Origin: Sphingopyxis sp. HIX
Lineage (GTDB): Bacteria; Pseudomonadota; Alphaproteobacteria; Sphingomonadales; Sphingomonadaceae
Assembly: GCF_001468285.1 (NCBI RefSeq)
Contig: NZ_LNSB01000031.1
Span: 1-64,000 of the forward strand
Length of the DNA: 64,000 bases
Direction: 5' to 3'
Shown here one piece after another: positions 28,989 through 36,724 of this stretch (position 1 is its first letter; each line of letters opens with the position of its first letter). Under the pieces are notes generated by a model. That model made no database searches and had not been told where the DNA came from. It saw nothing but the letters and a program-made list of their open reading frames with translations. Both the position numbers and the translations under genes were made by a program.

Positions 28989-29028
28989 AAAAAAGGGACC
29001 GGAAGCACGCGCTTCCGGTCCCTTTTTT
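28989..29028 (-). terminator. Intrinsic terminator after rplQ
   Basis: AAAAAAGGGACCGGAAGC and GCTTCCGGTCCCTTTTTT are perfectly complementary around ACGC, with T runs on both strands. It stands 21 bases after the rplQ stop codon. It could also stop transcripts coming from the left. Confidence 0.93.
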
Positions 29029-29048
29029 GTTCGATCGAAAGTCCGAGT

Positions 29049-29471
29049 TTACGCGGCTTCCATCTCGTCGTCATACTGCTCGACGGGGCCCGAATCCTGG
29101 CCCTTGGCGTCGACGTCGCGATCGACGAATTCGATGATCGCCATCGGGGCGGCGTCCGAGGCGCGGATGCCGGCCTTGATCACGCGGGTGTAGCCGCCGT
29201 TGCGATCCTTGTAGCGCTCGGCGATCGTGTCGAAGAGCTTCTTCAGCTGGGTTTCGTCGAGCAGGCGGCTCTGCGCGAGGCGGCGATTGGCAAGGCCGCC
29301 GCGCTTGGCGAGCGTGACCAGCTTTTCGACATAGGGACGCAGTTCCTTCGCCTTGGCGACGGTGGTCATGATCTGCTCATGCTTGATGAGCGAGGCCGAC
29401 ATGTTGCGGAACATCGCGGTACGATGCGCGCTGGTGCGCTGCAGCTTCCGGCCACCCGATTTATGACGCAT
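29049..29471 (-). CDS. rplQ: 50S ribosomal protein L17
   Basis: A 140-residue L17, part of the large subunit near the exit tunnel. [20 protein letters not shown] is the conserved start and [18 protein letters not shown] the family core; the acidic C-terminal extension is typical of alphaproteobacteria. rplQ normally follows rpoA directly. Here it is separated by a 2.6 kb SIR2-TPR gene with hairpins on both sides, and a promoter-like sequence of its own lies at 29592-29619. Confidence 0.97.
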
Positions 29472-29555
29472 AATCCATTCCTTCGTTTGTCAGAGGGGCC
29501 GTACAAGGTACCCCAAGCCAGGCCCGTTTACGGGTGAGCCCAAACCCTGAAACGA

Positions 29556-29580
29556 AAAGCGGGGCGCGTGGCCCCGTTTT
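29556..29580 (-). terminator. Hairpin between SIR2-TPR gene and rplQ
   Basis: CGGGGC and GCCCCG pair around a short loop, flanked by AAAAG and GTTTT, so it reads as a terminator on either strand. It may end the SIR2-TPR transcript. It also lies just downstream of the putative rplQ promoter, where it could act as an attenuator. Confidence 0.55.
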
Positions 29581-29591
29581 CTTCGCGGGTG

Positions 29592-29619
29592 CCTTTAGCG
29601 AAAACGGGCGGAGAGTCAA
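29592..29619 (-). promoter_or_regulatory. Putative rplQ promoter
   Basis: Minus-strand TTGACT (29619-29614), 16 bases, TAAAGG (29597-29592). The TGA of the SIR2-TPR stop codon is part of the -35 box. If real, it lets rplQ be expressed independently of rpoA, which the inserted gene and terminators would otherwise prevent. The -10 box is weak. Confidence 0.45.
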
Positions 29620-32216
29620 GCTGGCGGCGGCGCACAGCCGACATCGGCGAGCGCCGCCTGAAATTCGGGGGTGTCGCGAATCGCATCGAAGTCGGTGTCG
29701 GTGGTGATGTGGTCGCAGGACGGGAAGTCCAAAGCTGTGCGCTGGGATTTACGCAACCAGTTCGCCGCCTCCGCCGCCTGACCTTGTAAGGCCGATAGGC
29801 AGGCCAGATTATAGGCGGCTGATCCGGGCAGGATGGTCTCGGCTTGCATAAACTTGCTTTCCGCTCCGTCGAACAAGGCTGCCGCTTCCTTGCCCGATTT
29901 GCGTTTCGCCTGTTCCATCAGCGCGACACCCCAATTGTTCAGCGCTTCATGCATGTCGGGCTTGATTGCAAACGCGTCGGCATATTTCGCATAGGCCTCA
30001 GCGAAGAGAACGTCGCCTTCCTCGCCCGGCGTGCGTTCCGCCTGCTCCGACAGCGCTATACCCCAATTGTTCAGCGCTTCATGCTTGTCGGGCTTGATCG
30101 CGAGCGCGGCGGCATATTTCATATAGGCCTCAGCGAAGAGCGCGTCGCCTTCCTCGCCCGGCGTGCGTTCCGCCTGATCCGACAGCGCTGTACCCCAATT
30201 GAACAGCGCTTCATGCATGTCGGGCTTGATCGCGAGCGCGGCGGCATATTTCGCATAGGCCTCAGCGAAGAGCGCGTCGCCTTCCTCGCCCGGCGTGCGT
30301 TCCGCCTGCTCCGACAGCGTGACACCCCAATTGTGCAGCGCTTCATGCTTGTCGGGCTTGATCGCGAGCGCGGCGGCATATTTCGCATAGGCCTCAGCGA
30401 AGAGCGCGTCGCCTTCCTCGCCCGGCGTGCGTTCCGCCTGATCCGACAGCGTGACACCCCAATTATGCAGCGCTTCATGCTTGTCGGGCTTGATCGCGAG
30501 CGCGGCGTTATATTTCGCATAGGCCTCAGCGAAGAGCGCGTCGCCTTCCCCGCCCGGTTTGCGTTTCGCCTGATCCGACAGCGCGTTACCCCAATTGAAC
30601 AGCGCTTCATGCTTGTCGGGTTTGATCGCGAGCGCGGCGTCATATTTCGCATAGGCCTCAGCGAAGAGCGCGTCGCCTTGCTCACCCGGTTTGCGTTCCG
30701 CTTGATCCGACAGCGTGACACCCCAATTGAACAGCGCTTCATGCTTGTCGGGTTTGATCGCGAGCGCGGCGTCATATTTCGCATAGGCCTCAGCGAAGAG
30801 CGCGTCGCCTTCCTCGCCCGGTTTGCGTTTCGCCTGCTCCAACAGCGCGGTGCCCCAATTGTTCAGCGCTTCATGCTTGTCGGGTTTGATCGCGAGCGCG
30901 GCGTCATATTTCGCATAGGCCTCAGCGAAGAGCGCGTCGCCTTGCTCACCCGGTTTGCGTTCCGCCTGCTCCAACAGCGCGACACCCCAATTGTACAGCG
31001 CTTCATGCATGTCGGGCTTGATCGCGAGCGCGGTGGCATATTTCGCATAGGCCTCAGCGAAGAGCGCGTCGCCCTCCTCGCCCGATTTGCGTTCAGCTTG
31101 GTCCGACAGTACGTTGCCCAATTCTGTCGCGGCCCATGCGGCAAGGTCGCGGTCCGCTTCGTCGGGACTTGCTGTTGTGCCAAATATATCCAACACGTCC
31201 TGATATCGTCCGTCCGCCATCAATTGTGTAATCTGCGACCTTTCCGGAAAACGCTCGGCCGCCTGCTCCAATCGCTGCTGCGCTTGCGTCAGCAACAGGT
31301 CGTTCGGGCTGTTTCCGTCGCTATCAAAGGGCGCTATCGCCCCCAGAACGTCCTTCATATGGCCAAAGGGATCGGCGAGGCATTGCGGTGCCGGGACTTC
31401 AAGAGCATTGGCCAGTTCGATAAAAAACGGATCGCCGGGGGCGTTGCGGACGACCCAGCAATTTTCCTTCTCCAGCAATTTTTCGCACACATTGGCGGCC
31501 GGGTCGCGGTCGTCGTGACAGACCCAGAACAGCCCGTGGTTAAACGGCGCCAACTCGGCGATCCGATCCACCAGCGGGTCGCACTCGCCGCTATAGCCGG
31601 CGATGATGATCGGCTTTCCCTTCATCGCCGCGTCGAGCACCGGCCGGATGCGATCGGCCTGCTGCTGCAATTTGTCGGCGGTGTTCAGCAACAGGAAGCC
31701 GGTATGCTGACCGTGCAGGTGGAAGATCGCCGATCCCTTGACGAAGGACCGGTCGAAATTGATCTGGTTGTTCGCATCGTCGCGCAGCCCGGCCAGATCG
31801 TAGATCGCCGGAAAACGGTTGAACATCGCGCAGGCGCGCGAGGCGAGGGGATCGAAATTGGGGGTCAGGATCGTATCGATCACCCCTGCGGCCTCGAGGC
31901 GTGCGATGCCGATATGTGCCCAGTTGATCCGCGCCCGGTCGATGTCCTCGCGGACCAACTGCACCTGCAAGGCGGTGGGAAGCGCCGCCATGCACTCGGC
32001 GTAGCCGGGATTGCCCGGGGTTTCGGCCGCCTCGCAAGCTTTGGCGTAGCTTTGGGGATAGCCCTTCCGGATTCTTTCGACGAAATCGCCCGCAAGCCCG
32101 ATGCCCGCCGTCTTGGAGACGCCGGCGCCGACCAGCACGCAGGCCTTGACGCCGCCGACATGGGCACCGCGCACCAGCTCGGCGACCTGAAGAATGCTCG
32201 CTTCTTTCAATGGCAT
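29616..32216 (-). CDS. SIR2-domain protein with tandem TPR repeats
   Basis: An 866-residue protein. Residues 1-280 are a SIR2 (sirtuin-like, NAD-binding) domain: VGAGVS (29-34), TPNFD (118-122), the catalytic HG in FHLHG (H168), and GYSG (207-210). All elements expected of an active NAD-cleaving domain are present. Residues 376-771 are nine nearly identical 44-residue TPR-type units (core AEAYAKYDAALAIKPDKHEA), then a degenerate tenth and a short tail. ATG 32216 has GGGGAGG just upstream. The gene lies between rpoA and rplQ, which are normally adjacent. SIR2 domains joined to sensor modules occur in antiviral NADase systems such as Thoeris ThsA and DSR; a defence or stress role is inferred, not shown. 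No partner gene is adjacent. Confidence 0.9.
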   Translation of the reverse strand: MPLKEASILQVAELVRGAHVGGVKACVLVGAGVSKTAGIGLAGDFVERIRKGYPQSYAKACEAAETPGNPGYAECMAALPTALQVQLVREDIDRARINWAHIGIARLEAAGVIDTILTPNFDPLASRACAMFNRFPAIYDLAGLRDDANNQINFDRSFVKGSAIFHLHGQHTGFLLLNTADKLQQQADRIRPVLDAAMKGKPIIIAGYSGECDPLVDRIAELAPFNHGLFWVCHDDRDPAANVCEKLLEKENCWVVRNAPGDPFFIELANALEVPAPQCLADPFGHMKDVLGAIAPFDSDGNSPNDLLLTQAQQRLEQAAERFPERSQITQLMADGRYQDVLDIFGTTASPDEADRDLAAWAATELGNVLSDQAERKSGEEGDALFAEAYAKYATALAIKPDMHEALYNWGVALLEQAERKPGEQGDALFAEAYAKYDAALAIKPDKHEALNNWGTALLEQAKRKPGEEGDALFAEAYAKYDAALAIKPDKHEALFNWGVTLSDQAERKPGEQGDALFAEAYAKYDAALAIKPDKHEALFNWGNALSDQAKRKPGGEGDALFAEAYAKYNAALAIKPDKHEALHNWGVTLSDQAERTPGEEGDALFAEAYAKYAAALAIKPDKHEALHNWGVTLSEQAERTPGEEGDALFAEAYAKYAAALAIKPDMHEALFNWGTALSDQAERTPGEEGDALFAEAYMKYAAALAIKPDKHEALNNWGIALSEQAERTPGEEGDVLFAEAYAKYADAFAIKPDMHEALNNWGVALMEQAKRKSGKEAAALFDGAESKFMQAETILPGSAAYNLACLSALQGQAAEAANWLRKSQRTALDFPSCDHITTDTDFDAIRDTPEFQAALADVGCAPPPA
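29904..31091 (-). repeat. Nine tandem 132-bp repeats within the SIR2-TPR gene
   Basis: Nine consecutive 132-base units encode the 44-residue TPR copies. Units differ by only a few bases, mostly in the codons for the second to fifth residues and around the KPDK/KPDM position. Such similarity suggests recent unequal crossing-over, so copy number may vary between strains. It is not a CRISPR array: the units abut without spacers and stay in frame. Confidence 0.95.
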
Positions 32217-32262
32217 CAAATACCTCCCCTTTCCCGGAAGCTATTCGCTGCGCGCACAAATG

Positions 32263-32290
32263 AAAAGAGCCGCCCGAGGGCGGCTCTTTT
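32263..32290 (-). terminator. Intrinsic terminator after rpoA
   Basis: AAAAGAGCCGCC and GGCGGCTCTTTT pair around CGAG, with T runs on both strands, 34 bases after the rpoA stop codon and before the SIR2-TPR gene. In an uninterrupted alpha operon no terminator is expected here. Confidence 0.9.
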
Positions 32291-32323
32291 GCCAATCGAA
32301 AAAATATCGGGATAGCAGCGCTA

Positions 32324-33382
32324 TCAGCCCAACAGCTCCTGTTCGAGCTTCTTGGCCATTTCCTCGATATTCTCCGGCGGCCAGCCGGGGATGTCCATGC
32401 CCAGGCGCAGGCCCATCGACGACAGCACTTCCTTGATTTCGTTCAAGGACTTGCGGCCGAAGTTCGGCGTGCGCAGCATTTCGGCTTCGGTCTTCTGAAC
32501 GAGGTCACCGATATAGATGATATTGTCGTTCTTCAGGCAGTTGGCCGAACGGACCGACAGCTCGAGCTCGTCGACCTTCTTCAGGAGGAAGCGGTTGAGC
32601 TGGTTGACGTCGCTCTCGTCGGCGGTGGTGGGCGAGGCCGCCATGCCGATCATGCCGCTGTCGTTCATCGCTTCTTCGAAGTGGACGAAGACCTGCAGCT
32701 GGTCCTGGAGGATGCGCGCGGCGTAAGCGACGGCGTCTTCCGGGGTCACGGTGCCGTCGGTGTCGACGGTCAGCGACAGCTTGTCATAGTCCAGTTCCTG
32801 GCCGATGCGGGCATTGTCGACCTTGTAGGCGACCTGGCGCACGGGCGAGAAGAGCGAGTCGACCGGGATCAGGCCGATCGGCGCGTCGGCCGGGCGGTTG
32901 GCGGTCGCGGGGACATAGCCCTTGCCGGTGTCGGCGACGAGTTCCATGTTGAGCGTCGCGCCATCGTCGAGGTGGCAGATGACATGGTTCGGGTTCATCA
33001 CCTTGATGTCGCCCGACACCATGATGTCGCCGGCCTTGACGGTCGCGGGACCGGTCGCCGAAAGCTGGAGCCGCTTCGGGCCTTCGCCTTCCATCTTGAG
33101 CGCGATCTGCTTCACGTTGAGGACGATGTCGGTGACGTCCTCGCGCACGCCGGCCAGGCTCGAGAATTCGTGCAGGACGTTCTCGATCTTGATCGACGTG
33201 ATAGCCGCACCCTGGAGCGACGAGAGCAAAACGCGGCGCAGCGCGTTGCCGAGCGTCAGGCCGAAACCGCGCTCAAGCGGCTCGGCGACGAAGGTCGCCT
33301 TGCGCTTGCCGTCGCTGCCGGCCTTGATTTCCAGGTTGCTGGGCTTCTTCAATTCCTGCCAGTTCCGGATATTGACAGTCAT
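32324..33382 (-). CDS. rpoA: RNA polymerase alpha subunit
   Basis: A 352-residue alpha subunit. The N-terminal dimer domain has [21 protein letters not shown], and the C-terminal domain has [20 protein letters not shown] and [13 protein letters not shown], the UP-element and activator surface. Length is normal for the family. It follows rpsK in the alpha operon, and is followed by a terminator rather than by rplQ. Confidence 0.98.
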
Positions 33383-34581: not shown

Positions 34582-35373
34582 CTATTCCTTGGACGTAAGC
34601 GCAACCGCGCGATCGTGCAAGCGCGCGACGACGGCCCGGTGGATTCCGGGGGCGCAGGCGATGACGCCGAAGGCCTGCGCGCGCGGGGTGTTGAAGCGCA
34701 GCGGCTCGCCGAAGGCGTCCGAAACCGCCGCTCCCGCCTCGGCCGCGATCAGCGCGGCGGCGGCGACGTCCCATTCGAAACCCCAGCGCAGGGTCGCGAC
34801 CAGGTCGGCGCGGTCGTCGGCGACCAGCGCCATGCGGAGCGCGATGCTGTTCGGCTTGGTCACCATGATCAGGTCGCGGTCGATCTTGGGCAGGCTGTCG
34901 GCGGGAACGCGCGAGCCGTCGAAGATCATCCGGCGGCTGGCGCGCAGCGCTTCGCCGTTCAAGGTCGCGCCCTTGCCCTTTTCGGCGACCCACAATTCGT
35001 CGAGCGCGGGGGCATAGAGCACGCCGAGCTCGGGCGCGCCGTCGACGACCAAGGCGACCGACACGCACCAGCCGGGGCGGCCGCGGATGAAGTCGCGCGT
35101 GCCGTCGATCGGGTCGACGCACCACATCGCGCGGCACGCCAGGCGGTCCTCGTTGTCGGCGGTCTCCTCCGACAGCCAGCCCGCCTCGGGCACCATTGCG
35201 CCGAGCACGGCTTTAAGCCGCGCATCGACCGCGAGGTCGACGTCGCTGACCGGATTGTCGTGCGACTTGTGCCAGACGTCGACCGGCCGGCCCTCGCCGC
35301 GCCAGCGCGCAATCGCCATGTCGCCGACCTCGCGGGTGGCGGCGATCACGGCTTCGAGGTTGCGACCCGGCAT
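34582..35373 (-). CDS. Inositol monophosphatase family protein, CysQ-like
   Basis: A 263-residue lithium-sensitive phosphatase family member. Metal ligands appear in SEETAD (Glu), DPIDGTRDF (two Asp) and WDVAAAALIAAEAG. The DGTRDF variant is typical of the CysQ-like 3'(2'),5'-bisphosphate nucleotidase branch, which removes PAP from sulfate assimilation. Histidinol or inositol phosphate are alternatives. It starts seven bases after the end of pmbA and is likely cotranscribed. A GTTTCCGCGACGCGGAAAC hairpin follows it. Confidence 0.82.
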   Translation of the reverse strand: MPGRNLEAVIAATREVGDMAIARWRGEGRPVDVWHKSHDNPVSDVDLAVDARLKAVLGAMVPEAGWLSEETADNEDRLACRAMWCVDPIDGTRDFIRGRPGWCVSVALVVDGAPELGVLYAPALDELWVAEKGKGATLNGEALRASRRMIFDGSRVPADSLPKIDRDLIMVTKPNSIALRMALVADDRADLVATLRWGFEWDVAAAALIAAEAGAAVSDAFGEPLRFNTPRAQAFGVIACAPGIHRAVVARLHDRAVALTSKE

Positions 35374-35380
35374 GGCGTTC

Positions 35381-36724
35381 TCAGCTCGAGGCGACGGTCA
35401 TGCCGTCGATGCGCAGCGTGGGAACGTTGGTCGCGTGGCGGAAGGCGAGGTCGTCGGCGGGGATGAGCGCGGCGAACATGTCGATCAGATTGCCGGCGAT
35501 GGTGAATTCGGCGATCGGTTCGGCGAGCTCGCCGTTCCGGATCGCGAAGCCCGACGCGCCGCGGCTGTAATCGCCGGTGACCGGGTTGACCCCCTGGCCG
35601 ATCAGCTCGGTGACATAGATCCCCTCGGCGACCCCCTCCATCAGCGCGGCCGGGGTGACGCTGCCTGCGGCGAGATGGACGTTGCTCACGGCAACCCCCG
35701 ATGCGCCGCCGCCGCGGCTGGCGTGGCCGGTGGGGGTGAGGCCGAGCTGCTTGGCCGAGGCGGTGTCGAGCAGCCAGCCCGTGAGCTTGCCCGCGGCGAC
35801 GAGGTCGCGCGCCGCGGTCGGCAGGCCCTCGCCGTCGAAGGCGCGGCTGCGCAGCCCACGCGGCCGGTGCGGCTCGTCGCGGATGATAATCGCGCTGTCG
35901 AAGAGGACCTGCTCCTCCTTGCCGAGCAGGAAGCTGGTGCCGCGCGCGATCGCCGGACCGCTGATCGCGCCGAGCAGGTGGCTGACGAGACTGTTAGAGA
36001 CGCGCGGGTCGAAGACGACGGGGAGTTTGCCCGTCGGCGCCTTGCCGGGATTGAGCCGCGCGACCGCGCGGGTGCCCGCGCGCGTGCCGATGTCCGCGAC
36101 GCCTTCGAGGTCGGCGAGGTAATGCGCGCTGTGCCAGCCATAGTCGCGCTGCATGCTCGCGCCTTCGCCGGCGATGACGCTCGCCGAGAGGCTGTGCCCG
36201 CTCGCGCCGTAACCGCCCGCGAAGCCGTGGCTGGTCGCGAGCGCGATGCGCGTGCGGCTGTGGCTTGCGGTGCCGCCCTCGCTGTTGGTCACCCCGGCGA
36301 CCGCGCGCGCGGCCTCCTCGACCGCGCGCGCGGCGGCGCGCAGCGCCTGCGGGTCAGCCTCGCTCGCGTCGTCGAGGTCGAGGTCGGGGATCGGGCCCTT
36401 ATAAAGGAGCTCTTCGGGGGCGAGGCCGGCGTAGATATCCTCGGGCGCCTCGCGTGCCATCGCGACGCACCTTTCGACCAGCTTCGCCAGTTCGCCGGCG
36501 TCCATGTCGGCGGTCGACACGCTCGCGCTGCGCTGGCCGACGAAGACGCGGAGCGCGATGTCCTGCCCTTCGGAGCTCTCGACATCCTCCAATGCGCCGA
36601 GGCGCATCGAGACCGAGGTCGCGGCGTTGCAATAATAGAGCGCGTCGGCGGCGTCGGCGCCCGCCTTGGTGGCGGCGTCGCACAGCATCTGCGCACGGTC
36701 GAGGGCTTCGGCTACGGTCAGCAT
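35381..36724 (-). CDS. pmbA: Metalloprotease-like PmbA/TldE
   Basis: A 447-residue member of the TldD/PmbA family. VVFDPRVSNSLVSHLLGAIS, GTSFLLGKEEQVLF, and the C-terminal GVNPVTGDYSRGASGFAIRNGEL are diagnostic of the PmbA (TldE) subunit. It lacks the HExxxH zinc motif of TldD, with which it forms a protease that degrades unstructured peptides. tldD is not in this window. It is upstream of the CysQ-like gene by seven bases. Confidence 0.92.
   Translation of the reverse strand: MLTVAEALDRAQMLCDAATKAGADAADALYYCNAATSVSMRLGALEDVESSEGQDIALRVFVGQRSASVSTADMDAGELAKLVERCVAMAREAPEDIYAGLAPEELLYKGPIPDLDLDDASEADPQALRAAARAVEEAARAVAGVTNSEGGTASHSRTRIALATSHGFAGGYGASGHSLSASVIAGEGASMQRDYGWHSAHYLADLEGVADIGTRAGTRAVARLNPGKAPTGKLPVVFDPRVSNSLVSHLLGAISGPAIARGTSFLLGKEEQVLFDSAIIIRDEPHRPRGLRSRAFDGEGLPTAARDLVAAGKLTGWLLDTASAKQLGLTPTGHASRGGGASGVAVSNVHLAAGSVTPAALMEGVAEGIYVTELIGQGVNPVTGDYSRGASGFAIRNGELAEPIAEFTIAGNLIDMFAALIPADDLAFRHATNVPTLRIDGMTVASS

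What the first reader, a model, noticed from the sequence alone, without database searches (positions are those of the whole stretch)
29616..32216. SIR2-TPR gene inserted between rpoA and rplQ
rpoA and rplQ are adjacent in nearly all bacteria. Here a complete SIR2 domain (GAGVS, TPNFD, HG, GYSG) fused to nine identical-looking TPR units lies between them, bounded by a terminator after rpoA and a hairpin before rplQ. SIR2 domains in bacteria often act as NADase effectors of antiviral systems (Thoeris ThsA, DSR, SIR2-Argonaute). A large repeat sensor attached to one, in the alpha operon, is not a system I can name. Defence or self-destruction on ribosome or polymerase attack is a hypothesis.
Basis: partly seen in the sequence, partly recalled or inferred. 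Interest (0 to 1): 0.85.

Follow-up and report, generated by a model that had tools for sequence, protein, structure and literature searches.

The report
SIR2 effector with variable TPR array
A rare, horizontally spread bacterial gene joins a probable NAD-destroying enzyme to a chain of near-identical repeats that differ mainly at their likely binding surface, which looks like a self-diversifying virus sensor; its place between two housekeeping genes is probably incidental.

Summary
An 866-aa gene (29616-32216, minus strand) between rpoA and rplQ encodes a SIR2 domain with intact catalytic residues and a 44-aa TPR array. It is an insertion: 1 of 80 genus genomes has the SIR2 part, and the rpoA-rplQ gap is 106-261 nt in the 29 relatives measured, against 2852 nt here. 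It is not an alpha-operon gene. TPR models match 12 of 15 aligned members, which sit at other loci: after typA, after rho, between era and recO, and in a prophage-like contig. Two further SIR2 relatives lie near Septu or IetAS genes in viral contigs, but I found no TPR model match in them. The SIR2 fold is nearest SPARSA, then ThsA and KomC. Array units are 84% identical, yet vary at recalled TPR groove positions, mostly by amino-acid changes, as in fungal NLR repeats (PMC4986451). An array without identified SIR2 shows the same, so this marks recognition, not defence as such. Best reading: a one-gene abortive-infection receptor, new variant of a known kind. NAD loss and phage defence are inferred.

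The parts
29616..32216 (-). SIR2-TPR gene, 866 aa, ATG start (TTG at 32219 also possible)
31389..32216 (-). SIR2 domain, residues 1-276; N120, D122, H168 at the sites known as catalytic in DSR2 and ThsA; no CxxC motif in residues 1-300
   Evidence: Pfam; structure; conservation
31092..31388 (-). Helical linker, residues 277-375
   Evidence: AlphaFold2 secondary structure, (pLDDT 60s-80s)
29952..31007 (-). Eight near-identical 44-aa TPR units, residues 404-755
29820..29951 (-). Ninth, diverged TPR unit, residues 756-799
29649..29819 (-). TPR end-of-group domain, residues 800-856
   Evidence: NCBIfam NF047558, 48.6 bits over cut-off 32
32263..32290 (-). Perfect inverted repeat with A and T tracts after rpoA, terminator-like
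   Evidence: not listed by the scan
29560..29576 (-). G+C-rich hairpin with a T-rich tail between the gene and rplQ; outside the leader shared by relatives
29478..29541 (-). rplQ leader element shared in the genus; marks the rplQ-side edge of the insert
   Evidence: relatives match at most query positions 85-148
32324..33382 (-). rpoA, upstream neighbour
29049..29471 (-). rplQ, downstream neighbour
   Evidence: Ribosomal_L17

Best explanation
A horizontally acquired, one-gene, anti-phage abortive-infection receptor. The C-terminal TPR superhelix recognises a ligand in its concave groove, most likely a phage protein or a phage-altered host complex. Binding releases or oligomerises the N-terminal SIR2 domain, which then hydrolyses NAD+ and stops the infected cell. 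The array evolves by unit duplication and exchange, which keeps the scaffold uniform, while selection diversifies the groove residues. Shown here: the architecture, conserved catalytic residues, predicted fold, the concerted and groove-variable pattern of the array, rarity, varied loci, and viral-contig settings of relatives. Inferred: NADase activity, the trigger, oligomerisation and the cell outcome.
For: SIR2 fold nearest to SPARSA (8y80_E Z 23.3, rmsd 3.9, 275 aligned), then SeThsA Z 19.8 and KomC Z 19.4; in Foldseek the top rows are SPARSA, ThsA, KomBC and DSR2. By sequence profile the best PDB hits are SPARSA Sir2, E 3.5e-18. GAG, T118, N120, F121, D122, H168 and GY.G are invariant in 18 of 18 aligned sequences; DSR2 uses N133/Y134/D135/H171 and ThsA N112/Y113/D114/H152 (PMC11263360 passages). 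TPR models match 12 of 15 aligned members and TPR_END_plus 9 of 15. L043, same architecture, lies between an integrase and repressor-like genes of an IMG/VR contig. SIR2 relatives L061 and L062 lie about 1.3-1.4 kb from Septu PtuA/PtuB and from IetA/IetS, with one small ORF between. Within-array entropy at TPR positions 2, 5, 9, 12, 13 exceeds the rest in 6 of 6 arrays tested (window 1.09 against 0.22 bits, permutation p 0.00095). Non-synonymous/synonymous events are 68/13 in the groove against 143/101 elsewhere, pooled over 7 arrays, p 1.5e-5. Within-array DNA identity is 0.83-0.91 against 0.57-0.70 between five 44-aa arrays. GC3 is 0.77/0.72 against 0.85-0.89 in three neighbouring genes, consistent with acquisition.
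Against: No activity has been measured. L061 had no Pfam match at E<=0.001 and the family count implies none of a TPR model in L062 either, so the clearest defence neighbours belong to SIR2 relatives without a recognised TPR array. The alphaproteobacterial copies are mostly beside housekeeping genes, not in recognisable defence islands. A TPR array in which I identified no SIR2 (L041) shows the same groove diversity. The groove positions were recalled, and chosen after I had seen the units, so the permutation p-values are not blind; events in a repeat array are not independent. The tyrosine of the DSR2 and ThsA site is phenylalanine in all 18 sequences. Canonical sirtuins match the fold about as well as DSR2 does. 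The only promoter-like site on the gene's strand is weak, lies inside rpoA before the terminator-like repeat (32397-32369), and one match is what shuffles give (0.8).
Confidence: 0.68

Rival explanations
1. Alpha-operon guard: the gene senses attack on RNA polymerase or the ribosome and was recruited to the rpoA-rplQ site for that reason.
For: By eye, 6 of 8 alphaproteobacterial loci I could read have a transcription or translation gene on at least one side (window, typA twice, era, rho, and gatC about 1.3 kb away); the five outside the window were checked with Pfam.
Against: Absent from the rpoA-rplQ gap in all 29 relatives measured. Relatives elsewhere lie in viral contigs, after a potassium transporter, and in island-like settings. 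The two typA cases are probably one event. There is no background rate for such neighbours.
Confidence: 0.08
2. Nonself or kin-recognition receptor (plasmid, prophage or competitor cues), not chiefly anti-phage, again with SIR2-driven suicide.
For: Array evolution resembles the TPR repeats of fungal NLRs, receptors linked to nonself recognition (PMC4986451 passages). One same-architecture relative is itself in a viral contig.
Against: Septu and IetAS near two SIR2 relatives point to anti-phage function, though those two lack a recognised TPR.
Confidence: 0.12
3. A SIR2-family regulatory enzyme (deacylase or ADP-ribosyl transfer) with a TPR scaffold and a cellular role.
For: Canonical sirtuins also match structurally (1ici_A Z 18.3); 14 of 15 members match the CobB model at E<=0.001.
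Against: No CxxC motif in residues 1-300. For the window protein the CobB model scores 23 bits against a cut-off of 320. Sporadic distribution: 1 of 80 in the genus.
Confidence: 0.07
4. Decaying or inactive acquired gene with no present function.
For: Single occurrence in the genus; terminator-like repeat upstream and no convincing promoter.
Against: Full-length open frame, intact catalytic residues, good ribosome-binding sequence, groove changes mostly non-synonymous.
Confidence: 0.05

Closest known systems
DSR2 (defence-associated sirtuin 2)
   Same: One long protein with N-terminal SIR2 NADase and a C-terminal helical sensor that binds phage proteins (PMC11263360 passages); catalytic N, D, H conserved; SIR2 fold match Z 17-18
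   Different: DSR2's sensor is HEAT repeats plus a C-terminal domain; here it is a regular TPR array of near-identical units, with F instead of Y in the NYD motif
SPARSA (Sir2-APAZ with short Argonaute)
   Same: Closest SIR2 domain by fold and sequence; best PADLOC hits are Argonaute-associated SIR2 models
   Different: No Piwi match in the whole genome at E<=0.001; the PADLOC match of the window protein covers only the SIR2 part; sensor is TPR
AVAST type 5 (SIR2-STAND with C-terminal repeats)
   Same: SIR2 effector and repeat sensor, TPR in some (PMC12931631 passages)
   Different: No NTPase family found in this protein
Thoeris ThsA
   Same: SIR2 NADase fold, Z 19.8
   Different: No SLOG or macro domain found; immediate neighbours are rpoA and rplQ, not a TIR gene
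SIR2_2 proteins with a TPR domain in a published sirtuin tree
   Same: A figure legend of PMC12700824 lists TPR among the extra domains of SIR2_2 proteins in its tree (passage), so the domain pair is in print
   Different: I saw only the legend: which proteins, and any function or repeat evolution, were not visible
Fungal NLRs with high-identity TPR/WD/ANK repeats
   Same: Concerted repeats, copy-number variation, variable residues on the concave side (PMC4986451 passages)
   Different: Eukaryotic STAND receptors; here no NTPase was found and the effector is SIR2
PADLOC candidate PDC-S65
   Same: 15 of 15 family members match it; in the window protein over the SIR2 domain
   Different: In the window protein the match does not extend into the TPR array; no paper naming PDC-S65 was found

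Membership tests
SIR2-type NADase effector (SIR2_2) | SIR2 fold with the catalytic N, D and H | tested here: met
   Pfam 24.7 bits (cut-off 24.5); N120, D122, H168 invariant in 18 of 18; fold
SIR2-type NADase effector (SIR2_2) | Hydrolyses NAD+ | not testable with these tools
   needs an assay
DSR2 | SIR2 followed by a HEAT-repeat sensor and C-terminal domain | tested here: not met
   C-terminal part is TPR by Pfam and best matches TPR superhelices; DSR2 HEAT per PMC11263360. Foldseek does align DSR2 chains along the whole model, but at TM about 0.2
DSR2 | Activated by phage tail tube protein | not testable with these tools
   needs experiment
SPARSA / SIR2-Argonaute | Short Argonaute partner | tested here: not met
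   0 Piwi matches in own genome at E<=0.001; neighbours are rpoA and rplQ
Thoeris | ThsA SLOG/macro C-terminus with a ThsB TIR partner gene | tested here: not met
   Pfam lists no such domain in the protein; immediate neighbours rpoA and rplQ. A TIR gene elsewhere in the genome was not sought
AVAST type 5 | Central STAND NTPase | tested here: not met
   no NTPase family; about 100 helical residues between SIR2 and the array
SIR2-HerA | HerA ATPase partner next door | tested here: not met
   neighbouring genes rpoA and rplQ; HerA elsewhere was not sought
Canonical sirtuin deacylase | Zinc module with CxxC pairs (recalled) | tested here: not met
   no CxxC in residues 1-300; CobB model 23 of 320 bits
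PDC-S65 candidate | Match over most of the model | tested here: inconclusive
   only model positions 126-291 of 592 matched; the C-terminal make-up of the model was not seen

The most novel reading that the evidence does not exclude
This is a new class of bacterial immune receptor without an NTPase switch: a SIR2 NADase wired directly to a TPR array that serves as a self-diversifying recognition surface. Units homogenise and change in number while groove residues diversify, as in fungal NLRs. It moves as a single-gene cassette, sometimes in viral elements, and lands between housekeeping genes.
Probability: 0.43. Interest if true: 0.8.

Novelty: new variant of a known kind. Interest (0 to 1): 0.58.

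Why it matters
Antiphage SIR2 proteins are known with HEAT, STAND-plus-repeat, SLOG and Argonaute-linked sensors. A SIR2 joined directly to a near-identical TPR array whose variation sits at the recalled ligand-binding positions would be a bacterial counterpart of the repeat-diversifying receptors of fungi. It would make testable how a bacterium re-targets an immune sensor: swap units or groove residues and read phage range. The SIR2-plus-TPR form is confirmed here in Pseudomonadota and one Armatimonadota MAG and in one viral contig, so it is not a one-off.

Tried and rejected
Alpha-operon role: rejected as the main reading, because the gap is empty in all 29 relatives measured and the gene is in 1 of 80 genus genomes. 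The 29 are the loci fetched, the best rpoA matches among the 59 other genomes; the rest were not measured.

Diversity-generating retroelement as the source of groove variation: the only RVT_1 match in the genome is on another contig; by eye it looks like a retron reverse transcriptase with a phosphoribosyltransferase-like neighbour. No template repeat was sought. Not supported.

Known RNA element: no Rfam match at gathering thresholds in 29000-33000.

Insertion signature: I searched the two junction stretches separately for repeats and saw no sign of a mobile element; they were not compared with each other, so a short target duplication is not excluded.

Relatives. The first genome-contig scan gave none, with patterns that did not suit; a trimmed three-sequence alignment gave 12 loci. 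Of these I left L052 and L060 out of all alignments (no clean SIR2 frame picked), and L064 of the viral scan (24% identity). L063 is the same contig as L043. L056 and G907 appear to be the same MAG and count once. L053's frame ends after the SIR2 domain (298 aa). On re-checking, TPR models match 12 of 15 aligned members; L061 scanned alone had no Pfam match at E<=0.001. The 7 family hits besides the window are 26-34% identical and, by eye, have other C-termini. G534/L041 matches only the TPR part. L050, L054, L056, L057, L043, L061 and L062 were not used in the variability test (too few or irregular units); L049 was used only.

BFVD search (best 50 of 531 rows shown): 12 rows at E<=0.001, mostly repeat proteins of giant viruses; the first SIR2-type row, a giant-virus deacylase, has E 8e-3.

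Paper searches without a named SIR2-TPR defence system: (25 of 36 listed). The library holds open-licence PMC papers only. PMC12700824 does list TPR among the extra domains of SIR2_2 proteins in a figure legend. Papers were read as matching passages only; the rest as search listings. TPR groove numbering (positions 2, 5, 9, 12, 13) is recalled; one search found no paper for it.
Full report
THE OBSERVATION. The gene is real. The minus-strand ORF 29616-32219 (ATG at 32216) codes for 866 residues. Pfam gives SIR2_2 and TPR families and NCBIfam a TPR end domain at 800-856. Tandem Repeats Finder finds a 132-bp unit, 9.3 copies, 91% matches, at 29885-31109. It lies between rpoA and rplQ.

A UNIQUE INSERTION. 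In a genus sample, 59 of 60 genomes, the window's own included, had an rpoA match at the search threshold; one of these is only a 30-base match. Loci of 29 relatives were fetched, the best-matching ones, and in all 29 rpoA and rplQ are 106-261 nt apart, against 2852 nt here. By eye the gap in relatives varies with hairpin-rich repeat sequence. The rplQ leader shared by relatives reaches at most window 29478-29541 (26 of 40 genomes matched at E<=1e-4, own included), so the insert is roughly 29542-32320. The SIR2 part is found in 1 of 80 genus genomes at E<=1e-20. In an order sample, 3 of 396 genomes matched the whole protein at E<=1e-20: the window, G566 (58% identity) and G534, which matches the TPR part only. 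In a family sample, 8 of 298 matched the SIR2 part at E<=1e-5, seven of them at only 26-34% identity. In a class sample, 3 of 385 matched the family profile at E<=1e-40, one of which, G907, appears to be the MAG already found as L056. GC3 of the gene is 0.77 (SIR2) and 0.72 (TPR) against 0.85-0.89 for rpoA, rplQ and the nearby phosphatase gene. This fits horizontal acquisition.

THE FAMILY. One genome-contig scan gave 12 loci, titled Erythrobacter, Hyphomicrobiales, Armatimonadota, Pirellulales, Syntrophales, Bradyrhizobium, Rhodospirillales, Alphaproteobacteria, Moraxellaceae, Gammaproteobacteria, Gynuella and Saprospiraceae; the Pirellulales and Saprospiraceae loci were left out of the alignments. 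The viral scans gave L043 (also listed as L063), L061, L062 and the weak L064. Of the 15 aligned members (window included), 12 match a TPR model, 12 the SIR2_2 model, 9 the TPR end domain. The Syntrophales frame ends after SIR2. L061 had no Pfam match, so L061 and its near twin L062 count as SIR2 relatives only. Placement differs: after typA (G566 and Erythrobacter), between era and recO, after rho, between a carbamoyltransferase gene and gatC, after a potassium transporter (flank domains). L043, with SIR2 and TPR, lies between an integrase and repressor-like genes by eye. L061 has Septu PtuA/PtuB and PDC-S49, and L062 IetA/IetS, at 1.3 kb and beyond. More distant SIR2 genes lie beside integrases in two Vibrio phages, without a TPR match, and in a pleolipovirus as SIR2 plus TPR. 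P2-like phages and P4-like satellites are published hotspots of anti-phage genes (PMC9122126, passages).

ENZYME. In 18 of 18 aligned sequences G30-A31-G32, S34, T118, N120, F121, D122, H168, G169, G207, Y208 and G210 are invariant. N120, F121, D122 and H168 correspond to N/Y/D/H of DSR2 and ThsA (PMC11263360 passages), with F for Y. The AlphaFold2 model of the whole protein has mean pLDDT 88.9, pTM 0.62; that of the SIR2 part 83.1, pTM 0.82. The SIR2 part matches SPARSA (8y80_E Z 23.3, rmsd 3.9, 275 aligned), SeThsA (Z 19.8), KomC (Z 19.4), then canonical sirtuins, SIR2-HerA, DSR2 and Avs5 at Z about 17-18, which are ties. A profile search of PDB sequences also ranks SPARSA Sir2 first (E 3.5e-18). 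There is no CxxC pair in residues 1-300, so the zinc module recalled for deacylases is missing. NADase activity is therefore likely but unproven.

SENSOR. The array folds as a TPR superhelix (OGT TPR domain Z 26.9; consensus TPR Z 24.5). Units are 44 aa here and 44 or 41 aa in relatives. Within arrays they are 75-85% identical in protein for five of six arrays, and 51% for L058. Within-array DNA identity is 0.91 in the window and 0.83-0.91 in the five 44-aa arrays compared, while identity between arrays of different genomes is 0.57-0.70: concerted evolution. Copy number differs between genomes. Variation inside an array is concentrated at TPR positions 2, 5, 9, 12 and 13. In 6 of 6 arrays tested mean entropy there is higher than elsewhere, with permutation p 0.00095, 0.00275, 0.0009, 0.00015, 0.0003 and 0.038. 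Non-synonymous to synonymous events are 68 to 13 there and 143 to 101 elsewhere, pooled over 7 arrays; in the window alone 8 to 2 against 12 to 5, which decides nothing by itself. Caveats: the positions are recalled from the TPR literature and I had seen the units before testing; the events are not independent; and a TPR array in which I identified no SIR2 (L041, 9 units) shows the same pattern, 14 to 2 against 27 to 25, p 0.0001. The pattern therefore says 'diversified binding surface', not 'defence'. The published parallel is fungal NLRs, whose high-identity TPR repeats vary in number and show positive selection on the concave side (PMC4986451, passages).

MECHANISM. The simplest model is a one-gene receptor: groove binding of a phage-derived or phage-altered ligand, release or oligomerisation of SIR2, NAD+ loss, arrest of the infected cell. 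DSR2 and Avs5 work broadly this way with other sensors (PMC11263360, PMC12931631, passages). Binding, oligomerisation and NAD+ loss are inferred here.

THE LOCATION. The position in the alpha operon is probably incidental: a tolerated intergenic site after a terminator-like repeat. Still, by eye 6 of 8 alphaproteobacterial loci have an information-processing gene on a side. No background rate was computed, so this stays unexplained.

KNOWN OR NEW. By tested features it is not a DSR2, SPARSA, Thoeris, Avs5 or SIR2-HerA member. PADLOC models for Argonaute-linked SIR2 and PDC-S65 match 15 of 15 members, in the window protein over the SIR2 domain only. My paper searches found no named SIR2-TPR system in an open-licence library, though one figure legend lists TPR among domains fused to SIR2_2 (PMC12700824). 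I rate it a new variant of a known kind, with the diversifying array as its real interest.

Noticed in passing
L041 (G534 contig 95, 1004-5446): Another high-identity TPR array (50-aa units) in the same family, in which I identified no SIR2, with the same groove-restricted variation; its effector end was not examined.
   Followed up: partly
rpoA-rplQ gaps of L010, L011, L012, L015, L020: By eye the gap in relatives carries hairpin-rich, REP-like sequence of varying length, suggesting a tolerated insertion site.
   Followed up: no
window 29478-29541: A leader element before rplQ shared across the genus, with no Rfam match at gathering thresholds.
   Followed up: partly
window 29592-29619, minus strand: By eye, a TTGACT-16 nt-TAAAGG promoter-like sequence overlapping the gene's stop codon, which could serve rplQ; the scan did not list it.
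   Followed up: no
L083 1213-2361 (G000 contig 24): A retron-like reverse transcriptase with a phosphoribosyltransferase-like neighbour elsewhere in this genome (by eye; RVT_1 by Pfam).
   Followed up: partly
window 57892-59889: A lipoxygenase gene (Pfam PF00305, 239 bits), uncommon in bacteria (recalled).
   Followed up: no
window 34582-36724: Upstream of rpsM lie an inositol-phosphatase family gene and a PmbA/TldD gene, not the secY/adk expected from memory.
   Followed up: no
L061 and L062: Two related viral contigs carry a SIR2 gene of this subfamily, without a recognised TPR, in the same setting but with different defence genes nearby (Septu plus PDC-S49, or IetAS).
   Followed up: partly
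alphaproteobacterial relatives L040, L049, L050, L055, L056: They sit beside typA, era/recO, gatC and rho; whether this preference is real is untested.
   Followed up: partly
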